Positions 9,638-18,404 of a stretch of 64,000 nucleotides of DNA are shown here, piece by piece (position 1 is the first letter of the stretch; each line of letters starts with the position of its first letter). The translations under genes were made by a program, and so were the position numbers. The notes beneath the pieces are model-generated. The model was not told where the DNA came from. It worked only from the letters and a program-made list of their open reading frames with translations, and made no database searches. The stretch is from Tolypothrix sp. PCC 7910 (GTDB lineage Bacteria > Cyanobacteriota > Cyanobacteriia > Cyanobacteriales > Nostocaceae). Location of the stretch: contig NZ_CP050440.1 in the NCBI RefSeq assembly GCF_011769525.1, positions 6,015,501-6,079,500 of the forward strand, written 5' to 3'.

Positions 9638-10147
9638 TCAAGTGGGGTTCTCGCTCGTAGCATGAGTGCAATTTCCGTACTCCCGCAATCCTGATAAACG
9701 AATTATGCTGTCGAGGCCTTCTTCTAAGGTTGGGGGTGCATCCCGTAGCTGACGATGCATTTTGAAGATGACTGCTTCAGGAACCTGGCGATCGCGTTTT
9801 CGATTTCGTGCTAAACACAGCCACACTGGAGTATCTGCCCATAGCGCGGTAATGTGGGTAAAACCGAACCCACGCGCTAGGAGAATAACTTTTCGGCGCT
9901 GGCGGCGCTGGGCATTGGTAGCATCGTAAATCACCGTTTTCCCTTGATTTTTAGCTTGGTGTAATTGCCGCCGAATTTCTCGCCAAATCAGCAGCCAATG
10001 CCCTTGAATCGCTTCATTGCCAAACAACTGCCCCCGAATACTATCTGTAGAAATCAGGTGTATCTGGGGGCATTCTGCAAGCAATTTTTTTACCCAAGTT
10101 GACTTACCGCTACCAGGAAGACCAATCAACAACAAGAGTTTTGTCAT
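9638..10147 (-). CDS. P-loop kinase of the AAA_33 / polynucleotide-kinase-like type
   Basis: A 169-residue protein with a Walker A motif at its very N-terminus (LLIGLPGSGKSTWVKK). DATNAQRRQRRKVILLA resembles the DAT[NF] segment of T4 polynucleotide-kinase-like and zeta-toxin-like kinases, and the lid region is basic (LARNRKRDRQVPEAVI). It probably phosphorylates a nucleic acid end, a nucleoside or another small substrate in the cytoplasm. The 121-base gap to the J-protein gene on the same strand and the 133-base gap to glgC leave it an independent unit. Family assignment is good, substrate unknown. No antitoxin-like partner gene is adjacent, which argues against a zeta-type toxin. Confidence 0.75.
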   Translation of the reverse strand: MTKLLLLIGLPGSGKSTWVKKLLAECPQIHLISTDSIRGQLFGNEAIQGHWLLIWREIRRQLHQAKNQGKTVIYDATNAQRRQRRKVILLARGFGFTHITALWADTPVWLCLARNRKRDRQVPEAVIFKMHRQLRDAPPTLEEGLDSIIRLSGLREYGNCTHATSENPT

Positions 10148-10217
10148 TAGTCATTTGTTGAAAACAAATAATTACCAACAACAGTACACCTGTGGGGAGG
10201 AAATTTCCTGCTAAAGT

Positions 10218-10277
10218 TTGCCTGTCATTAGTCCTTAATCAATAAATCTTGACTAATGACCAATGACCAATGACCAA
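10218..10277. repeat. Tandem AATGACC heptamers
   Basis: ACTAATG/ACCAATG units repeat across the end of the spacer between the P-loop kinase gene and glgC. The same family occurs at 61.6-61.7 kb. Confidence 0.75.
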
Positions 10278-10280
10278 TCA

Positions 10281-11573
10281 CTAAATGATTGTGCCATCAG
10301 GAATTACAGCATTTTTCAACACGACTACAATACCACTGCGGATATAGAAGCCTTGGCTTTCACGATCTGCTTCTTGGACGTTGTCTTTATTGATAATTTT
10401 CACATCACAACCGATGCGAGCGTTTTTATCGATAATCGCACGGCGGATGATGCTATCTGCACAAATACCTACAGAAATCTCATCTGGGACTGTATTGCAT
10501 TGGCGGCGTTCTATCGCAGATTGGTAATAATCGGCACCCATAATTAGGGATTCTTCGATGACAGTACCAGATTCGACGCGCGATCGCACTCCTAAAACTG
10601 AATGTTGAATGCGACAATTTTTCAGTATACAACCTTCACCAATCAAGGATTGGGTAATCTGGCAATCTAACAGCTTAGTGGGAGGCAAGTAACGAGCGCG
10701 GGTGTAAATTGGCGCTTCTTCGTCGTAGAAACTAAAGGGCGGTTGGGGTAATTGCGTCAGGGCTAGATTGGCATTATAAAAGGCTTCAATGGTTCCGATA
10801 TCTTCCCAATAATCATCAAATAAGTAAGCTTGAACGTTGTAATCTTTAGCGGCATCAGGAATAATTTCTTTACCGAAATCTGTACTTTCTAAAGATTCTT
10901 TCAGCAATTTGATCAAAACATCTTTTTTAAAGACATAAATTCCCATTGAGGCAATGTAGGGTTGGCGTTGGGCTTCTTCTGGGCTTAATCCCAGGATTGT
11001 AGTATCAACGCGCATTTGAGCTAAAGCTTCGCCCTTGGGTTTTTCGCTAAAGTCAATTACTCTACCGGATTGATCGATTTTCATCAAGCCGAAATCCGAA
11101 GCGCGGCGATCGTCGATAGGAATAACTGAGAGAGTAATATCGGCACCTGTTTCTCTATGACGTTCGACAAACTCGCGGTAATCCATGCGGTAGAGGTGAT
11201 CGCCAGACAGAATTAGATATTCCTCTGCATCCCATTCTTCCAACAACCAGATGTACTGACGCACAGCATCAGCCGTACCTTGGAACCAATTGGGGTTTTC
11301 TGGTGTTTGCTGTGCTGCTAATACTTCCACAAAGCCTTCACTGAAGCCACTAAAATTGTAGGCACGAGCAATATGGCGATTCAGAGATGCTGAGTTGAAT
11401 TGTGTCAGGACGTAGATTTTAAATATTTCGGAATTTATGCAGTTGCTGACAGGGATATCGATTAAGCGGTACTTTCCTGCCACTGGTACGGCTGGTTTAG
11501 CACGTAGTTTCGTTAACGGGTAAAGGCGAGTACCTGCACCACCACCGAGAATGATTGCTATAACTTTTTTCAC
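10281..11573 (-). CDS. glgC: Glucose-1-phosphate adenylyltransferase
   Basis: A 430-residue enzyme that makes ADP-glucose from glucose-1-phosphate and ATP, the first committed step of glycogen synthesis. The nucleotidyltransferase domain starts [20 protein letters not shown] and contains the substrate segments [12 protein letters not shown] and [11 protein letters not shown]. The C-terminal left-handed beta-helix with hexapeptide repeats runs from about 300 to the end ([25 protein letters not shown]). The start is GTG, with GGGAG seven bases upstream, and the protein then has the length usual in cyanobacteria. In this group the enzyme is activated by 3-phosphoglycerate and inhibited by phosphate. 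The long upstream region (to 12,011) probably holds its promoter. Confidence 0.97.
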
Positions 11574-12011
11574 AAAATGTCTCCCGACTGCCTTTCAACT
11601 CTCACCTTAAGTTTAGGACTGTCTGCCACCATAGGTAAGGGGGGATCAAAGATTATCGTTAGTGAATTTTACAGAATCCTGCCGGTGATATATGTCGCTG
11701 CCAATAAATAGCACATCAAAAGGTATGTATTGATTAACACCCAGGAAAAAGATGCGATCGCCAATCAAGTTTGACAACTCGGCAATCTCTCTATTTCACA
11801 ACTTAGCTTTTTTTAACAAAACCCAATTTCTCAGACAGTAAGCCTTACTATGCCCCAGGTTTTACAAAGAACAAAGTAGCTACTTATAGTTTTAAGAAAA
11901 ATTGTCAAATTCTGTTCACAATATTCTTGCTTAGCCTTTGCCAACTCTTAATATGCAGTGTTTAACTGTATAGAAACATAGCTAATAAGAGTGCGATCGC
12001 TAAATAGTAAA
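11574..12011. other. 438-base spacer, probable glgC promoter region
   Basis: No open frame of note and no hairpin with a T-run. Two HIP1 octamers (about 11,754 and 11,992) lie here. It should carry the promoter of glgC and the 3' end of the small minus-strand gene upstream; no specific motif could be named. Confidence 0.5.
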
Positions 12012-12311
12012 TTAAACACCCAATTTACGAAAATTTAACCTGGTGTTAACTAAATGTAATTTCTGGGATAACTTGAGATATTGTACCCAAGGTTGTTCGG
12101 ATAACTGGGCAATGGCATTAGCGGAAAGGGTTGCTGTAAAAGTATCTTTTCCCGGAATTACACCAGCTACATTAAGATTTTCTAAGACAGCAGTTGCGTC
12201 CGAATCTAAAATAGGTTTGGTGTGGATAAATACTGTCAAACTTGGTGTTTCTGGGTCTGATACATCATTAAGGGCTGTGGCTAGGGCAGCATCTAGCTTC
12301 TGATAATTCAT
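12012..12311 (-). CDS. Small protein resembling a subtilase prodomain (I9-like inhibitor candidate)
   Basis: A 99-residue cytoplasmic protein without a signal peptide. Its C-terminal half reads like a peptidase I9 propeptide: FTATLSANAIAQLSEQPWVQ is the strand-helix segment, followed by YLKLSQKLHL. Residues 70-87 align without gaps with residues 88-105 of the subtilase at 13.4-15.1 kb (LSExxxxQxxKxSxKLHL shared, 10 or 11 of 18 identical). The N-termini also align (KLxxxLxxAxxD in both). Prodomains of subtilases act as folding chaperones and tight inhibitors, so this may be a free-standing inhibitor of that protease. The start is ATG 12311, with AAGGA seven bases before it, rather than a TTG two codons upstream. 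That the gene is real is likely; its role is inference. Confidence 0.7.
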   Translation of the reverse strand: MNYQKLDAALATALNDVSDPETPSLTVFIHTKPILDSDATAVLENLNVAGVIPGKDTFTATLSANAIAQLSEQPWVQYLKLSQKLHLVNTRLNFRKLGV

Positions 12312-12759
12312 AAGCAAATCCTTGGTAATTAAGAAAGGCGATTTTGATTTTTACCTATCTTATTACCAACCTATCAAATTTATCGGTTTTAATTACCTAC
12401 CCTTATACAGACGTAATATACACTTGCCTACGTCTAATTACAGATTTTAATTGTGTCTTCTGTACAAAATAAAATGCAGACTTAAGCGCTTGATAACATC
12501 TACTGTGACTCAAGAGAGGAACAGGAAGGTTAGCATACTAGTCTTTTTTGCAACCCAGTTTCCTAAGTATATTGGTAGGCTATGAAAGCTGCTTATTCAC
12601 AATCTAGAAGTCATAGGTATTAACCCTGCATTTGAACAACTCTGTCAAAAGATTGATGGAGCATTCTTTACAGTTCGTAACATTTAATAAGAACCTGACA
12701 AATGAGTTCACAGCAGATTGAACTCCGCTAGATTTCTATTGAAATAGCAGGGAAATATT
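12312..12759. other. 448-base spacer between divergent small genes
   Basis: It holds the promoters of the small prodomain-like gene (minus) and of the DUF2267-type gene (plus). No convincing open frame, hairpin terminator or repeat family was seen. Confidence 0.45.
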
Positions 12760-13209
12760 ATGACAAGTCAATCACAAAAACAGCCATCATTCCTTGACAA
12801 AGTATTAGAACGGAGTAGTTTGCAATCGCTCAATGATGCTCAACGGGCAACTAATATAGTGTTCCGAATTTTGCGGGACATGATGTTAAATAAAACAAGT
12901 GATCAAATTGAAAAGGATCTCAAAGAAAGAACACCTGAATCTGAGCAGGAAGTGATAGACCTATGGCAAGATCCTAACGTTATGGTTGCTTTTTTCAGCC
13001 GAATTAGTCCTGTACAAAAGCTACATATTAAGCCAGGAACCTTTATGCTGCGCCTACAACAAGAAGGTGCTTTACCGGATGGGGTGCGTCCAGAGGAAGT
13101 TACCAAGGCAGTGTTCTCAGCTACTAGAGAAATTTTATCTCCAGAACGGAACAAAGAAATTGCTGCATTACTTCCAGGTGAAATTCAGCAAATTTGGGAG
13201 GGTGCTTGA
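12760..13209 (+). CDS. DUF2267-like conserved hypothetical protein
   Basis: A 149-residue helical, cytoplasmic protein with no cysteines, no signal peptide and no membrane segment. The segment RATNIVFRILRDMMLNKTSDQIEKDLKERTPE, and a second helical pair near the C-terminus (RPEEVTKAVFSATREILSPERNKEIAALLP), are reminiscent of DUF2267, which has two such helix pairs. The match is weaker than for the gene at 59.1 kb. AGGGA lies seven bases before the ATG. It lies between two minus-strand genes, the subtilase and its prodomain-like relative, on the opposite strand. Function unknown; in other bacteria DUF2267 genes often sit in stress-related clusters. Confidence 0.65.
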   Translation: MTSQSQKQPSFLDKVLERSSLQSLNDAQRATNIVFRILRDMMLNKTSDQIEKDLKERTPESEQEVIDLWQDPNVMVAFFSRISPVQKLHIKPGTFMLRLQQEGALPDGVRPEEVTKAVFSATREILSPERNKEIAALLPGEIQQIWEGA

Positions 13210-13303
13210 TTATTTTTAGGTAGCAGATTTAAGCTCAAGCAAGCTCGAAATTATCTATGTTTTTAAGGTAGGCGATCGCCCATCCTAAAACCTGTGATTT
13301 ACT

Positions 13304-13338
13304 TTTTGGATGTCATTGGCTCTCAATGACATCCAAAA
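13304..13338. terminator. Strong hairpin between convergent genes
   Basis: TTTTGGATGTCATT and AATGACATCCAAAA form a perfect 14-base stem with a seven-base loop, 95 bases after the DUF2267-like gene. It is the best terminator candidate for that gene even though no long T-run follows. Confidence 0.6.
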
Positions 13339-13357
13339 GGTATTTAGTGAAATAAAA

Positions 13358-13390
13358 AAATCGAGTTCTCAACTTGGATCAACTCGATTT
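13358..13390 (-). terminator. Terminator of the subtilase gene
   Basis: AAATCGAGTT and AACTCGATTT form a perfect ten-base stem. On the minus strand the stem runs into TTTTTTTATT, 19 bases after the subtilase stop codon. Confidence 0.8.
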
Positions 13391-13408
13391 AAGCAAATGA
13401 TTATTCAA

Positions 13409-15136
13409 CTACAAATTTGCGGCATCAATCACCCCAAAACCCCATTTACTATCAAAAGTTCCTGGGGGTTTACCAGGAATAGAACTGTTTTTACGTAGTA
13501 ATTCTTTTACTGTCTTTGGGTCAAGTTTAGGATCACGTTCTAAGAGTAATGCTACTAAACCAGTAACGAATGGTGTCGCCATACTAGTACCAGCCATCGC
13601 CACAAATTTAGAATTGAGCATCATGGAGCGATCAAGACTAGCATTAGCAGACAGAGCAGAAACAATCATCGCTCCTGGTGCGGCTACATCCGGCTTTTGG
13701 GCATCATTACGCAGTGGCCCTTCACTACTGAACTCAGACATGGTATCCACTTCTAAGCCCATATCTCGCACTTGATTATCAATATCTGTGTACTGTACTT
13801 TTGTGGTATAAGCTGCAACTGTAATTGCGCTACTAGCAGCGCCCGGAGAGCCAATTTTTACGGCATCCTTAACACTTTTACCTGTAAAGAAAACTGAGGA
13901 ATGATCGTCAAGCGCCCATACATCTAAGCGTGTGGCAGTTGCACTAGTATTCCGTACTCTTAACTGCCAAATACCTCCCATAACTGGCGAAGGGCCATTA
14001 CCTCGAATTTGCACAAAGAAATTGTGGTCACCGTTGCCTTTATCTGGCGCTGGTGTCACAATTTCTACCCGCGAATCGGGTAATTGATATTCCTGGGTGG
14101 GATTACCGTCAGTGATGATTTTTTGATAGGGGGTGACGAAACCATTAGGACTCCGCAGCGATATTTCTAATTCACTGTCGGCATCATACCAACCGTTTAA
14201 CCAAACTATGCCTACTTGATTTAAAGGCACATTAAAGCGCATACTGGCTGACTTTTTCGCAGCTATATTGGTTTGTCCGTGAATGTTGTCGTTCCCTTCG
14301 TTACCCGCAGCACAGCAAACAATTCTGCCAGGCCCTGTTTCCGCGTCAATAATTCGAGAAAGGGAGTCGCTTCCATCATGGGCATCAGCGTGTCCACCCA
14401 AGCTCATATTTAACACTACTGGCCGTCCCAAATCTGTTGCTACACGAAAAACATAGCGCACAGCATCGGCAATATGGGCATCCTGTAAGTCTGACTTAAC
14501 GATGACTAATTCTGCTTCTGGTGCAACACCTGCAAAAGTTCCATCTGCACCAGCCGCAATTCCGGCAACATGGGTACCATGACCGTCAGTATCTTGAGAG
14601 ACGGTCATTTGTTCGCCTGTAAATTCAGCCCCGTACTCACCTTCTTTGACTCCTGGCCCTGGAAGAGTTTGATCCCAAATGCGTAAAATCCGCCCAGCAA
14701 AGGCAGGATGTTTTGGATCAATGCCACTATCGACAATCCCAATGAGTACTCCCTTACCAGTCAATCCCGTTTTGTTTTTAAATTCTGGCAATTTCACCTT
14801 TCCAGGTGCCACATCCATCCGCAGATGTAGTTTGCGTGAAGGTTTGATGCGCTGAATCACATCTTCTTCTGATAAAGGATCTAAAGCCTGTAGCGGTAAA
14901 AACGCTGTCCGCACACTACCAGAAGCCTGATTAACACGAATGCCATATTGTTCTAAATGGCTTAAGTCTGCATCAGGTTCGCAGTAGAGAAAAACAATAC
15001 TCTTAGTAGGCTTGACAGGACTTTTATGGGCAATTATGCCAAGCGATCGCTTATGTGTGGTTAAAGCTTGCTCTCCTTCATTTTCATAATCTTGATAGGC
15101 CAACAGTAGCCCCGGAGAGAGTTTTTCGTGTCTCAT
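13409..15136 (-). CDS. Intracellular subtilisin-like serine protease (S8)
   Basis: A 575-residue protease with the full catalytic triad: Asp136 in GIVDSGIDPKHPAF, His186 in DGHGTHVAGIAAG and Ser518 in AGTSMATPFVTG; the oxyanion Asn is in CCAAGNEGND. There is no signal peptide, so it should act in the cytoplasm. Residues about 46-108 before the catalytic domain look like an I9-type prodomain, ending LSEEDVIQRIKPSRKLHL. An inserted beta-rich segment at about 310-400 separates the Asn and Ser blocks. The start is ATG 15136, with GGAG seven bases upstream, not the GTG four codons earlier. The 99-residue protein at 12.0-12.3 kb resembles its prodomain. Substrate unknown; calcium-dependent intracellular proteolysis is one possibility for this group. 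Confidence 0.92.
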   Translation of the reverse strand: MRHEKLSPGLLLAYQDYENEGEQALTTHKRSLGIIAHKSPVKPTKSIVFLYCEPDADLSHLEQYGIRVNQASGSVRTAFLPLQALDPLSEEDVIQRIKPSRKLHLRMDVAPGKVKLPEFKNKTGLTGKGVLIGIVDSGIDPKHPAFAGRILRIWDQTLPGPGVKEGEYGAEFTGEQMTVSQDTDGHGTHVAGIAAGADGTFAGVAPEAELVIVKSDLQDAHIADAVRYVFRVATDLGRPVVLNMSLGGHADAHDGSDSLSRIIDAETGPGRIVCCAAGNEGNDNIHGQTNIAAKKSASMRFNVPLNQVGIVWLNGWYDADSELEISLRSPNGFVTPYQKIITDGNPTQEYQLPDSRVEIVTPAPDKGNGDHNFFVQIRGNGPSPVMGGIWQLRVRNTSATATRLDVWALDDHSSVFFTGKSVKDAVKIGSPGAASSAITVAAYTTKVQYTDIDNQVRDMGLEVDTMSEFSSEGPLRNDAQKPDVAAPGAMIVSALSANASLDRSMMLNSKFVAMAGTSMATPFVTGLVALLLERDPKLDPKTVKELLRKNSSIPGKPPGTFDSKWGFGVIDAANL

Positions 15137-15207
15137 TTTTTTCTCCACGTCTATGTGTTTTCCCGATAATTAATGTATTGATTTTAGTAGTCTCAGTTGT
15201 TTTAGCA

Positions 15208-15363
15208 CATAAGGTTGGGACTGGGGACTGGGGATTGGGGATAAGGGAGCAGAGGAGGCAGAGGAAGCAGAGGAGAAATAATTAATGACAAACACCAAAC
15301 ACCAAAACCCCCAATTACCAATTACCAATTACCGATGCCCAATGCCCAATGCCCCATGCCCCA
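15208..15363. repeat. Tandem heptamer repeats (STRR type)
   Basis: GGGACTG/GGGATTG, GCAGAGGA, then CACCAAA, CCAATTA and GCCCAAT units run through the spacer between the DUF3288 gene and the subtilase gene. Confidence 0.8.
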
Positions 15364-15367
15364 TTAC

Positions 15368-15664
15368 CTAATTCCAATCTTGCTCTTCTTTCTTGCCGCG
15401 ACTTTTATAAATTCCACCGACATCATGAAGTTGACGAGTCTTAGCAAATAATTCAGCTTCGGTCAAACCCCAATGCTGTAAGACTTTATTTAAGTCTTGC
15501 TGAATATCTCTAGCACCGGGAAAGCCTTGATACCGTATCCACAACCGAGCCAGTTCTGCTAAATTATAATCTGTCGCCTCTTGAGCTAGTAAAATATCAA
15601 TAGTGGGGCGATCGCGGTTGTGCAGGGGATGCTGTTGATCTTTACCGCCAGATGCTTCAGTCAT
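15368..15664 (-). CDS. DUF3288 family protein
   Basis: A 98-residue cytoplasmic protein of a family known mainly from cyanobacteria. Recognisable family segments are KDQQHPLHNRDRPTIDILL, ATDYNLAELARLWIRYQGFP and LNKVLQHWGLTEAELFAKTR. The frame stays open further upstream, but ATG 15664 has AGGA seven bases before it and gives the normal family length; the upstream extension (42 residues) is not part of the family. Function unknown. It is divergent from clpC, sharing about 290 bases, and followed on its own strand by a repeat-filled spacer. Confidence 0.85.
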   Translation of the reverse strand: MTEASGGKDQQHPLHNRDRPTIDILLAQEATDYNLAELARLWIRYQGFPGARDIQQDLNKVLQHWGLTEAELFAKTRQLHDVGGIYKSRGKKEEQDWN

Positions 15665-15953
15665 AGTAAATCCTAGTTCTGATTCTTGAGTTTTAAGTCT
15701 ATCTGAGAGCAACGGTACAGAAAAGACCTCTAGAAAATCAGCAATCTCTGTCAAAATTGCTACTAATACCGGAAACCTGACGAAACTCACTATTCCTACT
15801 GACGGCTACCACACCTTAACTCTTACGGCTCTCACTACTGTCGTTCAACTTTAAATAAAGATACATTGTCATTAAGAAAATACATGAAACTTTAGATGAG
15901 GGTGATATATTATTTCACCCAAAGTCCAAGCAGCAAGGGAGCAATAACCCGCT

Positions 15954-18404
15954 ATGTTTGAACACTTCACTTCCGAAGCAATTAAAGTAATTATGCTAGC
16001 TCAGGAGGAGGCACGTCGCCTGGGACACAACTTTGTAGGAACAGAGCAAATTCTCCTCGGGCTGATGGGAGAAGGAACTGGGGTTGCTGCTAAAGTGCTG
16101 ACCGAATTGGGCGTTACTCTTAAAGAAGCACGTCGAGAGGTTGAAAAAATTATTGGTAGGGGTTCTGGGTTTGTACCACCAGAAATTCCTTTTACTCCTA
16201 AAGTAAAAAGCCTCTTTGAGCAATCATTTAAAGAAGCCCATAGTTTGGGGCACAATTACATTAATACAGAACACTTACTTTTAGGTTTAACCGAGGCTGG
16301 TGAAGGTGTCGCCGCCAAAGTACTGCAAAATCTGGGGGTTGACCTAAAAAGCGTCCGCACTGCTGTAGTTCGCCATTTAGGTGACAACACCACAGTTTTC
16401 GCCGCAGGTAATAGTGGTCAAAAGCACACCCAAACTCTCAGCCTGGAAGAATTTGGCAGAAATCTCACAAAACTAGCACAAGAAGGCAGACTTGATCCCA
16501 TTGTCGGCCGCGATAAAGAAATTGAACGTGCAATTCAAATTCTCGGACGTAGAACTAAAAGCAATCCTGTCTTGATTGGGGAACCCGGCGTTGGTAAAAC
16601 TGCGATCGCCGAAGGTCTAGCTCAACGCATTATCAATCAAGATGTGCCGGAAGTTCTGCAAGACAAGCAAGTTATCAGCCTTGATATGGGCTTGTTGGTT
16701 GCGGGAACTCGCTTCCGTGGGGACTTTGAAGAACGCATCAAGAAAATCGTTGATGAAATTCGCTCTGTCGGCAATATCATCCTGGTAATTGATGAAATTC
16801 ACACATTAGTTGGTGCTGGGGGTACAGAAGGCGGTTTAGATGCAGCCAATATCCTCAAACCTGCTTTAGCTAGAGGTGAATTGCAATGTGTGGGCGCAAC
16901 CACCTTGGATGAATATCGTCAGCACATCGAACGGGATGCAGCCCTAGAGCGGCGTTTCCAACCGATTATGGTTGGTGAACCGACTGTAGAAGAAACTATC
17001 GAAATTCTCTACGGCTTGCGGGGAGCTTACGAGCAACACCATAAAGTGACAATTTCCGACACAGCTGTAATAGCCGCAGCCGAATTGTCAGACCGCTATA
17101 TTAGCGATCGCTTCTTACCTGATAAAGCCATAGACTTGATCGATGAAGCAGGTTCTCGCGTCCGCTTGAGGAACTCGCAGTTATCTTCTAACAAAGAACT
17201 CAAGCGCGAACTCGCTGGCGTGACCAAAGCTAAAGAAGAAGCTGTCAGAGTCCAAGATTTTGACAAAGCAGGTAACCTACGCGATCAAGAGTTGGAACTG
17301 CAAAACAAACTCTACGCTGAGTCAGAAGCGGGAACAGCTAAAACTCCCGTTGTCGATGAAGAAGACATTGCCCAAATTGTCGCTTCCTGGACTGGTGTAC
17401 CAGTCAACAAGCTCACAGAATCAGAATCTGAGCTACTGTTGCACTTGGAAGATACACTGCATCAACGCCTCATCGGTCAAGAACAAGCAGTTACCGCCGT
17501 ATCTCGAGCCATCCGTCGCGCCAGAGTTGGGTTAAAGAACCCCAATCGCCCCATCGCCAGCTTTATCTTCTCCGGCCCCACAGGTGTTGGTAAGACAGAA
17601 TTGGCTAAAGCCTTAGCAGCTTACTTCTTTGGCTCCGAAGAAGCCATGATTCGCCTGGATATGTCCGAATACATGGAAAGCCATACAGTATCTAAGCTGA
17701 TTGGTTCACCTCCAGGTTATGTAGGCTACGACGAAGGCGGACAACTAACAGAAGCAGTGCGGCGCAAACCATACACAGTGCTGCTATTTGATGAAATCGA
17801 AAAAGCGCACCCCGATGTATTCAATATGCTGCTGCAACTCTTGGATGACGGACACCTTACCGATGCGAAAGGTCGGAAAGTGGACTTCAAGAACACCTTA
17901 ATTATCTTGACCTCTAATATCGGTTCCAAGGTAATTGAAAAAGGTGGCGGTGGATTAGGCTTCGACTTCGACAATGCAGCCGATGCTAGTTACAACCGCA
18001 TCCGTAGCTTGGTTAACGAAGAACTCAAAGCTTACTTCCGTCCAGAGTTCCTCAACCGTCTTGATGAGATTATCGTCTTCACCCAGCTTTCTAAGGGTGA
18101 AGTTACACAAATTGCCGATATCTTATTACGCGAAGTTGCAGGTCGCTTGACAGAAAAAGGCATTACTTTAGAAGTGAGCGATCGCTTCAAAGAACTGGTA
18201 GTACAAGAAGGCTACAACCCCAGTTACGGTGCAAGACCGTTACGTCGAGCAATTATGCGCCTGTTGGAAGATTCTCTTGCGGAAGCGCTACTGTCTGGTC
18301 AAATCACCAATGGCGACACTGCAATTGTGGATGTTGACGACGACGGTCAAGTGCAAGTCCGTAAATCTGAACAACGCGAATTACTCTTGGCAAATGTTGG
18401 CTAA
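15954..18404 (+). CDS. clpC: ClpC, Hsp100 unfoldase of the Clp protease
   Basis: An 816-residue AAA+ ATPase that unfolds substrates and feeds them to the ClpP proteolytic core in the cytoplasm or stroma-like space. Two N-terminal Clp repeats cover residues about 1-145 ([39 protein letters not shown]). AAA1 has Walker [10 protein letters not shown] and Walker [14 protein letters not shown]-like middle segment ([19 protein letters not shown]) marks ClpC rather than ClpB. AAA2 has GPTGVGKTE and [15 protein letters not shown]. The C-terminal part carries the LGF loop (GGGLGFDF) used by ClpC/ClpA for ClpP docking. Sequence and length match the essential cyanobacterial enzyme. The gene is monocistronic, with a terminator 122 bases downstream. 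Confidence 0.98.

What the first reader, a model, noticed from the sequence alone, without database searches (positions are those of the whole stretch)
12012..15136. Free-standing protein resembling the prodomain of the neighbouring intracellular subtilase
Seen directly: residues 70-87 of the 99-residue protein and residues 88-105 of the S8 protease share LSExxxxQxxKxSxKLHL without gaps, and both N-termini share a KLxxxLxxAxxD pattern. Known: S8 prodomains (peptidase inhibitor I9 family) act as chaperones and inhibitors, and free I9-like inhibitors exist (for example in fungi). Inferred: the small gene is a detached prodomain that inhibits or helps fold this cytoplasmic protease, forming an uncharacterised protease-inhibitor pair split by a DUF2267-like gene on the opposite strand.
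Basis: partly seen in the sequence, partly recalled or inferred. Interest (0 to 1): 0.72.

Follow-up and report, generated by a model that had tools for sequence, protein, structure and literature searches.

The report
Detached prodomain paired with cyanobacterial protease
In many filamentous cyanobacteria a small gene encodes a free copy of the built-in "safety cap" of a neighbouring protease, and genomes that have one of the two genes nearly always have the other, which suggests that the small protein holds the protease in check.

Summary
The 99-aa protein (12012-12311, minus) is homologous over its whole length to the prodomain of the S8 protease (13409-15136, minus): hhalign of 50 homologues against 36 proteases gives 96.9%, E 1.9e-10, small 1-88 on protease 1-106; shuffled controls stay far below. 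AlphaFold2 predicts an I9-like order of elements at medium confidence, and the first 14 Foldseek hits are S8 prodomains or pro-enzymes, none below E 0.02. In 192 genomes of the family both genes occur in 130, neither in 57, one alone in 5. In 44 of 72 related loci the small gene lies within 700 bp downstream of the protease (median 123.5 bp); the DUF2267 gene between them was seen only in the window and one relative. The pair persists when unlinked. Best explanation: a stand-alone, propeptide-type inhibitor acting in trans on a subtilase that keeps its own prodomain. Inhibition itself is inferred; a folding helper is the main rival. Stand-alone inhibitors of this kind that I found described are eukaryotic: a new variant of a known kind.

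The parts
12012..12311 (-). Small gene, 99 aa: free-standing I9-like domain homologous to the prodomain of the neighbouring subtilase
   Evidence: dN/dS against six relatives 0.09-0.20
12048..12104 (-). Codons of residues 70-88 of the small protein (LSEQPWVQYLKLSQKLHL and V88): counterpart of the C-terminal end of the prodomain; predicted product-like end for the protease's active-site cleft (inferred)
   Evidence: the AF2 model has pLDDT under 50 from residue 86 on
12012..12047 (-). C-terminal tail after the shared block (residues 89-99 and stop), variable and of low confidence in the model; the 84 frames compared end 3 to 26 residues after the S-Q-K-L motif
13409..15136 (-). S8 subtilase, 575 aa, no obvious signal peptide (read from the sequence, no predictor run); D136, H186, N279 and S518 invariant in 36 aligned orthologues (their roles as triad and oxyanion residues recalled)
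14819..15136 (-). Prodomain of the subtilase (residues 1-106), homologue of the small protein
12760..13209 (+). DUF2267 gene (149 aa) on the opposite strand between the two; probably a late insertion, not part of the pair
   Evidence: a homologue (bit score 50 or more) found in 1 (L031) of 73 related loci scanned
10281..11573 (-). glgC (glucose-1-phosphate adenylyltransferase), conserved downstream neighbour of the small gene; context only
   Evidence: NCBIfam NF002772 and TIGR02091 above cut-off; homologue downstream on the same strand in 58 of 72 loci, at 105 to 5711 bases

Best explanation
The small gene is an old duplicate of the prodomain of the neighbouring subtilase, now a gene of its own (shown: homology, one clean split between small proteins and prodomains on the tree, purifying selection, co-inheritance). 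Its product most likely binds the mature protease in trans as a product-like inhibitor: the predicted sheet packs on the catalytic domain and the K-L-x-L end lies in the substrate cleft, as a cleaved prodomain does. The protease keeps its own prodomain for folding, so the extra copy would set the level of active protease in the cell and mop up stray activity. The binding mode, the cytoplasmic site and the regulatory role are inferred from the fold, the lack of an obvious signal peptide and known propeptide-like inhibitors.
For: Full-length profile match to the prodomain and to no other part of the protease; against the prodomain alone the score is 67.4, while 7 catalytic-domain windows, the reversed and 200 column-shuffled prodomains score 17.0 or less. 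I9-like predicted fold; the first 14 PDB hits are S8 prodomains or pro-enzymes. In a scan of the nine S8 frames of the genome (two of them cut by the locus ends) only the neighbour matches (E 1e-7 for that small set; next 0.15); in G223, which lacks the small gene, the profile's only hit in the genome is this prodomain (E 2.7e-4). Protease upstream on the same strand in 52 of 52 loci with a complete protease in the locus. The pair is kept when not adjacent: 13 of the 14 searched genomes without the protease in the locus carry an orthologue elsewhere. dN/dS 0.09-0.31 for the small gene. Precedent: SUB1-ProM of Plasmodium, a stand-alone propeptide-like protein encoded next to subtilase genes, is a potent inhibitor (PMC6993865; abstract, introduction and discussion read).
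Against: No inhibition data. The AF2 model is of medium confidence (mean pLDDT 70.8, pTM 0.53), no Foldseek hit is below E 0.02 (TM-scores by query length 0.39-0.58 in the first 14), and no complex could be modelled. Matches to PF05922 are not significant. Two genomes (G223, G514) keep the protease without the small gene, so it is not indispensable; three have the small gene with no orthologue of the protease found. The tails vary together at the P1-like columns in raw counts (7 both, 4, 4, 60; p 4e-5) but not once relatedness is allowed for (5 independent pairs, median p 0.625), and another column pair away from the tail scores better in the raw count. The small gene is also a steady neighbour of glgC (58 of 72 loci).
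Confidence: 0.66

Rival explanations
1. Trans-acting chaperone: the free prodomain copy helps the catalytic domain to fold or refold, with inhibition only a side effect.
For: Prodomains do both (PMC6993865, introduction); an external chaperone serves the propeptide-deficient Aeromonas sobria protease (Kobayashi 2015, seen only as cited). The usual gene order protease then small gene at a median of 123.5 bases would suit co-production.
Against: The protease keeps its own prodomain: the matches of all 132 genomes begin at query residue 1 or 2 (the 36 were picked as complete, so prove less). Two genomes lack the small gene and keep the protease.
Confidence: 0.2
2. The small protein has moved to another partner: it regulates the neighbouring glgC product or another protein, and the protease link is history.
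For: glgC lies downstream on the same strand in 58 of 72 loci, also in genomes where the protease is far away (G281, G217).
Against: Presence follows the protease (130/3/2/57), and glgC stands beside the protease in G223 and G514 without the small gene. In G004 the small gene is beside neither and the protease is still in the genome.
Confidence: 0.09
3. Decaying by-product of a duplication without function.
For: Short, no significant Pfam family, absent in two genomes that have the protease.
Against: dN/dS 0.09-0.31, present in 133 of 192 genomes, 9 columns invariant in 50 homologues.
Confidence: 0.03
4. Chance similarity of two unrelated proteins.
For: Single-sequence similarity is weak (E 0.53 in a genome-wide tblastn) and PF05922 is not reached significantly.
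Against: Profile score 67.4 against at most 17.0 in 200 shuffles; like order of predicted elements.
Confidence: 0.01

Closest known systems
SUB1-ProM of Plasmodium (stand-alone subtilisin propeptide-like inhibitor)
   Same: Small gene of its own with a propeptide-type fold, next to subtilase genes and in their orientation; proposed endogenous inhibitor of one subtilase (PMC6993865: abstract, introduction, discussion read).
   Different: Eukaryote, acts in the parasitophorous vacuole; its sequence similarity to the SUB1 propeptide is called low there. Here: bacterium, no obvious signal peptide, full-length profile homology to the neighbour's prodomain, and inhibition not shown.
MEROPS I9 stand-alone inhibitors: POIA1 (Pleurotus), peptidase B inhibitor (yeast), SPI-1 (Arabidopsis); also TgMIC5 (Toxoplasma)
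   Same: Free I9-type domains not cut from an enzyme precursor (as described in the introduction of PMC6993865).
   Different: All from eukaryotes; that introduction says the first three lack significant sequence similarity, and does not say that they are encoded beside their target.
Aeromonas sobria protease ASP and its external chaperone ORF2
   Same: Bacterial subtilase with a separate partner protein; a passage of PMC8902146 describes one deleted fragment running from ASP into ORF2, so the genes are neighbours. Kobayashi 2015 itself is not held; only its citation was seen.
   Different: ASP lacks a propeptide (passages of PMC9549277); the protease here keeps its own. Similarity of ORF2 to this protein was not tested.
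PopC/PopD of Myxococcus xanthus
   Same: Subtilisin-like protease without a signal peptide, in complex with a second protein that inhibits its secretion (passages of PMC6434023).
   Different: The words propeptide and prodomain do not occur in that paper's main text; the PopD sequence was not compared here.
Csp proteases of Clostridia (CspA, CspB, CspC)
   Same: Best structural matches of the protease model: four CspA or CspC-CspA chains and one CspB chain in the first five.
   Different: 21-23% identity, model of mean pLDDT 61.8. I recall no free prodomain copy for them; not searched.

Membership tests
Stand-alone I9 / propeptide-like subtilase inhibitors | I9 fold (two helices packed on an antiparallel sheet; description recalled) | tested here: met
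   AF2 elements E25-31 H37-45 E57-62 H64-71 E76-81, medium confidence (one I9 strand not assigned); first 14 Foldseek hits are S8 prodomains or pro-enzymes, prob up to 0.99, best E 0.026
Stand-alone I9 / propeptide-like subtilase inhibitors | Significant match to Pfam PF05922 | tested here: not met
   14 of 50 homologues listed, best E 0.015; the window protein itself not listed
Stand-alone I9 / propeptide-like subtilase inhibitors | Small protein of its own, not joined to a protease domain | tested here: met
   Frames of 85-111 aa in the 72 loci L029-L100
Stand-alone I9 / propeptide-like subtilase inhibitors | Homology to the prodomain of a subtilase in the same genome | tested here: met
Stand-alone I9 / propeptide-like subtilase inhibitors | C-terminal residues coevolve with the prodomain's cleavage-site residues | tested here: inconclusive
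   Raw association p 4e-5 in 75 pairs, 5 independent pairs median p 0.625
Stand-alone I9 / propeptide-like subtilase inhibitors | Tight inhibition of a subtilase | not testable with these tools
   Needs purified proteins
Peptidase family S8 (the partner) | Asp-His-Ser triad and oxyanion Asn (assignment by recalled motifs) | tested here: met
   PF00082 E 3.8e-49; D136, H186, N279, S518 invariant in 36 of 36
Csp-type subtilases (the partner) | Inserted jelly-roll domain in the catalytic domain (recalled) | tested here: inconclusive
   Strands at about 285-407 in a model of mean pLDDT 61.8; best Foldseek hits CspA, CspB
PopC/PopD pair | Sequence relation of the small protein to PopD | not tested
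   No PopD sequence was at hand

The most novel reading that the evidence does not exclude
A bacterial regulatory pair in which a cytoplasmic subtilase is controlled in trans by a gene-encoded duplicate of its own prodomain, widespread in Nostocales-type filamentous cyanobacteria and kept even when the genes part; a bacterial counterpart, arisen separately, of the eukaryotic stand-alone propeptide inhibitors, perhaps gating proteolysis during stress or cell differentiation.
Probability: 0.5. Interest if true: 0.7.

Novelty: new variant of a known kind. Interest (0 to 1): 0.58.

Why it matters
The stand-alone propeptide inhibitors listed in the introduction of PMC6993865 are eukaryotic and said to lack significant sequence similarity, so whether they descend from prodomains or converged on the fold is open (convergence is suggested there). 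Here descent from a protease prodomain is visible in the sequence, in bacteria, with a clean co-occurrence record over many genomes. That makes the question testable, offers a small protease-inhibitor pair for biochemistry, and points to a regulated protease of filamentous cyanobacteria. I found no description of this pair in the listings of searches, in a library that lacks most subscription papers.

Tried and rejected
PF12195 and other weak Pfam hits of the small protein: not significant, scattered, rejected. PDB sequence searches with the small protein and its profile: chance hits only. G278 hit in the phylum search (E 4.9e-5): a frame antisense to deoC, dropped as spurious. G037/G060 hits (E 0.003) lie in long frames (689 codons open) and reach only E 0.13 with the profile in a small set; dropped. 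L101 (Limisphaerales contig): a broken relative starting MNYQKLDAALAAEL, no protease match in its genome at E 1e-20; left out of alignments and of the count of 72 loci. Coevolution of C-terminal residues: suggestive, not significant after allowing for relatedness; one row there (L022) counts a gap as a change. Mirror correlation of distances (0.78 small against catalytic part, 0.72 against prodomain) not used, because vertical descent alone would give it. VIA-align library absent. Rfam in 10000-16500: nothing at gathering scores. PADLOC: a general subtilase model and weak IetS matches for the protease, none for the small protein. The predicted cleavage after L105 rests on my own alignment with subtilisin numbering from recall, not on a call. 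The genomes sampled are related; no species tree was built.
Full report
What is there. On the minus strand, 12012-12311 encodes a 99-residue protein and 13409-15136 a 575-residue S8 protease; a DUF2267 gene lies between on the plus strand. The protease has PF00082 (E 3.8e-49), no signal peptide that I can see in the sequence (no prediction program was run), and D136, H186, N279 and S518 invariant in 36 aligned orthologues. Of 78 complete orthologues collected two lack the exact string GHGTHVAG (L126, L135); both are among the 36, in which H186 is invariant.

Is the similarity real? The gapless block LSExxxxQxxKxSxKLHL has 10 identities in 18; 0 of 2000 shuffles reach it, and 0 of 5000 reach the Smith-Waterman score (71; largest shuffle 64). 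The single pair gives E 8e-5; genome-wide tblastn gives E 0.53, with no other hit up to E 10 besides the gene itself. With 50 small proteins and 36 proteases, hhalign gives probability 96.9 and E 1.9e-10, and aligns small 1-88 with protease 1-106, the prodomain. Against the prodomain alone the score is 67.4; 200 column-shuffled prodomains give a mean of 2.9 and at most 17.0, the reversed one 8.3, seven windows of the catalytic part at most 7.7. Small 1-68, without the block, still scores 39.6 (E 2e-7).

Fold. AlphaFold2 with 50 sequences gives mean pLDDT 70.8 and pTM 0.53, with helix 8-16, strand 25-31, helix 37-45, strand 57-62, helix 64-71, strand 76-81, and pLDDT under 50 from residue 86. 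Foldseek against the PDB has no hit below 0.001 (best 0.026), but the first 14 are S8 prodomains or pro-enzymes (subtilisin BPN' and E, Tk-subtilisin, ProN-Tk-SP, PCSK9, and the PAM and ProteinT protease entries, which I judge by chain length), probability 0.60 to 0.99; rank 15 is an unrelated protein. The prodomain in the weaker protease model (mean pLDDT 61.8; the prodomain itself largely under 70) shows helix 8-24, strand 46-51, helix 59-64, strand 75-80, helix 82-89, the same order. The protease model is nearest to CspA and CspB of Clostridia. Pfam's I9 model is only touched: 14 of 50 small proteins, best E 0.015; no I9 match was listed for the 36 proteases.

Which protease? The genome holds ten matches to PF00082 in nine reading frames. 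In a scan of these frames (two cut by the locus ends) the small-protein profile hits only the neighbour (E 1e-7 for that small set); the next is 0.15. In G223, a genome that lacks the small gene, the profile's only hit up to E 10 is again this prodomain (E 2.7e-4), and in G514 there is none.

Co-occurrence. A second look found only distant S8 relatives in G428 and G480 and none in G511. By matching coordinates G480 is the genome of locus L087, whose contig ends 386 bases upstream of the small gene. In an order-wide sample of 148 genomes the strong hits of both are in the same 7; in a phylum-wide sample of 292 the small gene is in 10 (after dropping G278) and the protease in those 10 and G223. 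The samples overlap. Within genera g2 and g178 some genomes have both and others (G035; G417) neither.

Neighbourhood. Of 72 cyanobacterial loci from GTDB genomes (L029-L100; found by one N-terminal peptide pattern, so not a full census), 44 have the complete protease within 700 bases upstream on the same strand (median gap 123.5), 8 between 1.3 and 3.3 kb, 5 have a partial or split protease, 15 none in the locus, some of these at contig ends. Of the 15, 14 genomes could be searched and 13 carry an orthologue (65-93% identity) elsewhere, in two of them 7 and 16 kb upstream on the same contig; the other (L087) shows only a 31% relative. A DUF2267 homologue was found in 1 of 73 loci (L031) besides the window. 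glgC (named by NCBIfam) lies downstream on the same strand in 58 of 72. In G223 and G514 the protease is followed by glgC and the small gene is gone (the 429-codon frame of G514 taken as glgC by size and place).

Origin and constraint. A quick tree of 50 small proteins and 36 prodomains puts all small ones on one side of one branch (SH-aLRT 100; 86 columns, so inner forks are weak). This fits one early duplication; it does not root it. dN/dS of the small gene is 0.09-0.20 against six relatives and 0.09-0.31 in twelve other pairs; the protease is 0.05-0.15 in the 14 comparisons made.

Mechanism. Shown: homology to the prodomain, co-inheritance, constraint. Inferred: the small protein occupies the prodomain's place on the mature enzyme and leaves its K-L-x-L end in the cleft. 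By my alignment with subtilisin numbering (recalled, not from a call) the prodomain would be cut after L105, the last residue of the shared block. Some small proteins end 3 residues after the S-Q-K-L motif (5 of 84 frames), which suits a product-like end; 73 of 84 run 6 to 17 residues further. Raw covariation at columns 87/105 and 88/106 ranks second and third of 21 testable column pairs, but is not significant once relatedness is allowed for (tested for 87/105).

Comparison with the literature. SUB1-ProM of Plasmodium (PMC6993865; abstract, introduction and discussion read) is the closest known thing in anatomy and proposed action. Its introduction names three characterised stand-alone I9 proteins and TgMIC5, all from eukaryotes. 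PopC/PopD (PMC6434023, passages) and ASP with its external chaperone (cited in PMC9549277 and PMC8902146, passages; the original not held) are bacterial subtilases with a separate partner protein, but no propeptide homology of the partner was seen in what I read. PMC2605481 (passages) and the listings gave no description of this pair.

Verdict. Observation confirmed; interpretation supported as homology and partnership, open as to inhibitor or chaperone, with inhibitor favoured because the protease retains its own prodomain.

Noticed in passing
window 10281-11573 and loci L029-L100: The small gene is a steady upstream neighbour of glgC (58 of 72 loci), also in genomes where the protease is far away (G281, G217).
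   Followed up: partly
L024 5988-6204 (same record as L094, Oscillatoria princeps MAG): The protease is split into two frames by an insert of about 107 bases that holds a hairpin ending in GATTGAAAC, like a single CRISPR-type repeat (likeness recalled); no second copy in the 11.5-kb locus.
   Followed up: partly
L101 4052-4323: A Limisphaerales contig carries a broken relative of the small gene without a protease match in its genome at E 1e-20: transfer, contamination or a wider family.
   Followed up: partly
L026 4020-4684: In G004 the small gene starts 68 bases behind a STAS anti-sigma factor antagonist gene (TIGR00377), while the protease is on another contig.
   Followed up: partly
L056, L057, L061, L066, between protease and small gene: Two plus-strand genes (239-270 and 634-672 aa) stand between the pair; in L056 they match a Cro/C1-type HTH and pentapeptide repeats.
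   Followed up: partly
G559:C1:6750409-6752132: The protease frame is broken (stops and overlapping pieces) in a genome that keeps the small gene.
   Followed up: no
window 13409-15136: 10 of 36 protease orthologues weakly match the proprotein convertase P-domain (best E 0.0043), perhaps the inserted beta domain.
   Followed up: no
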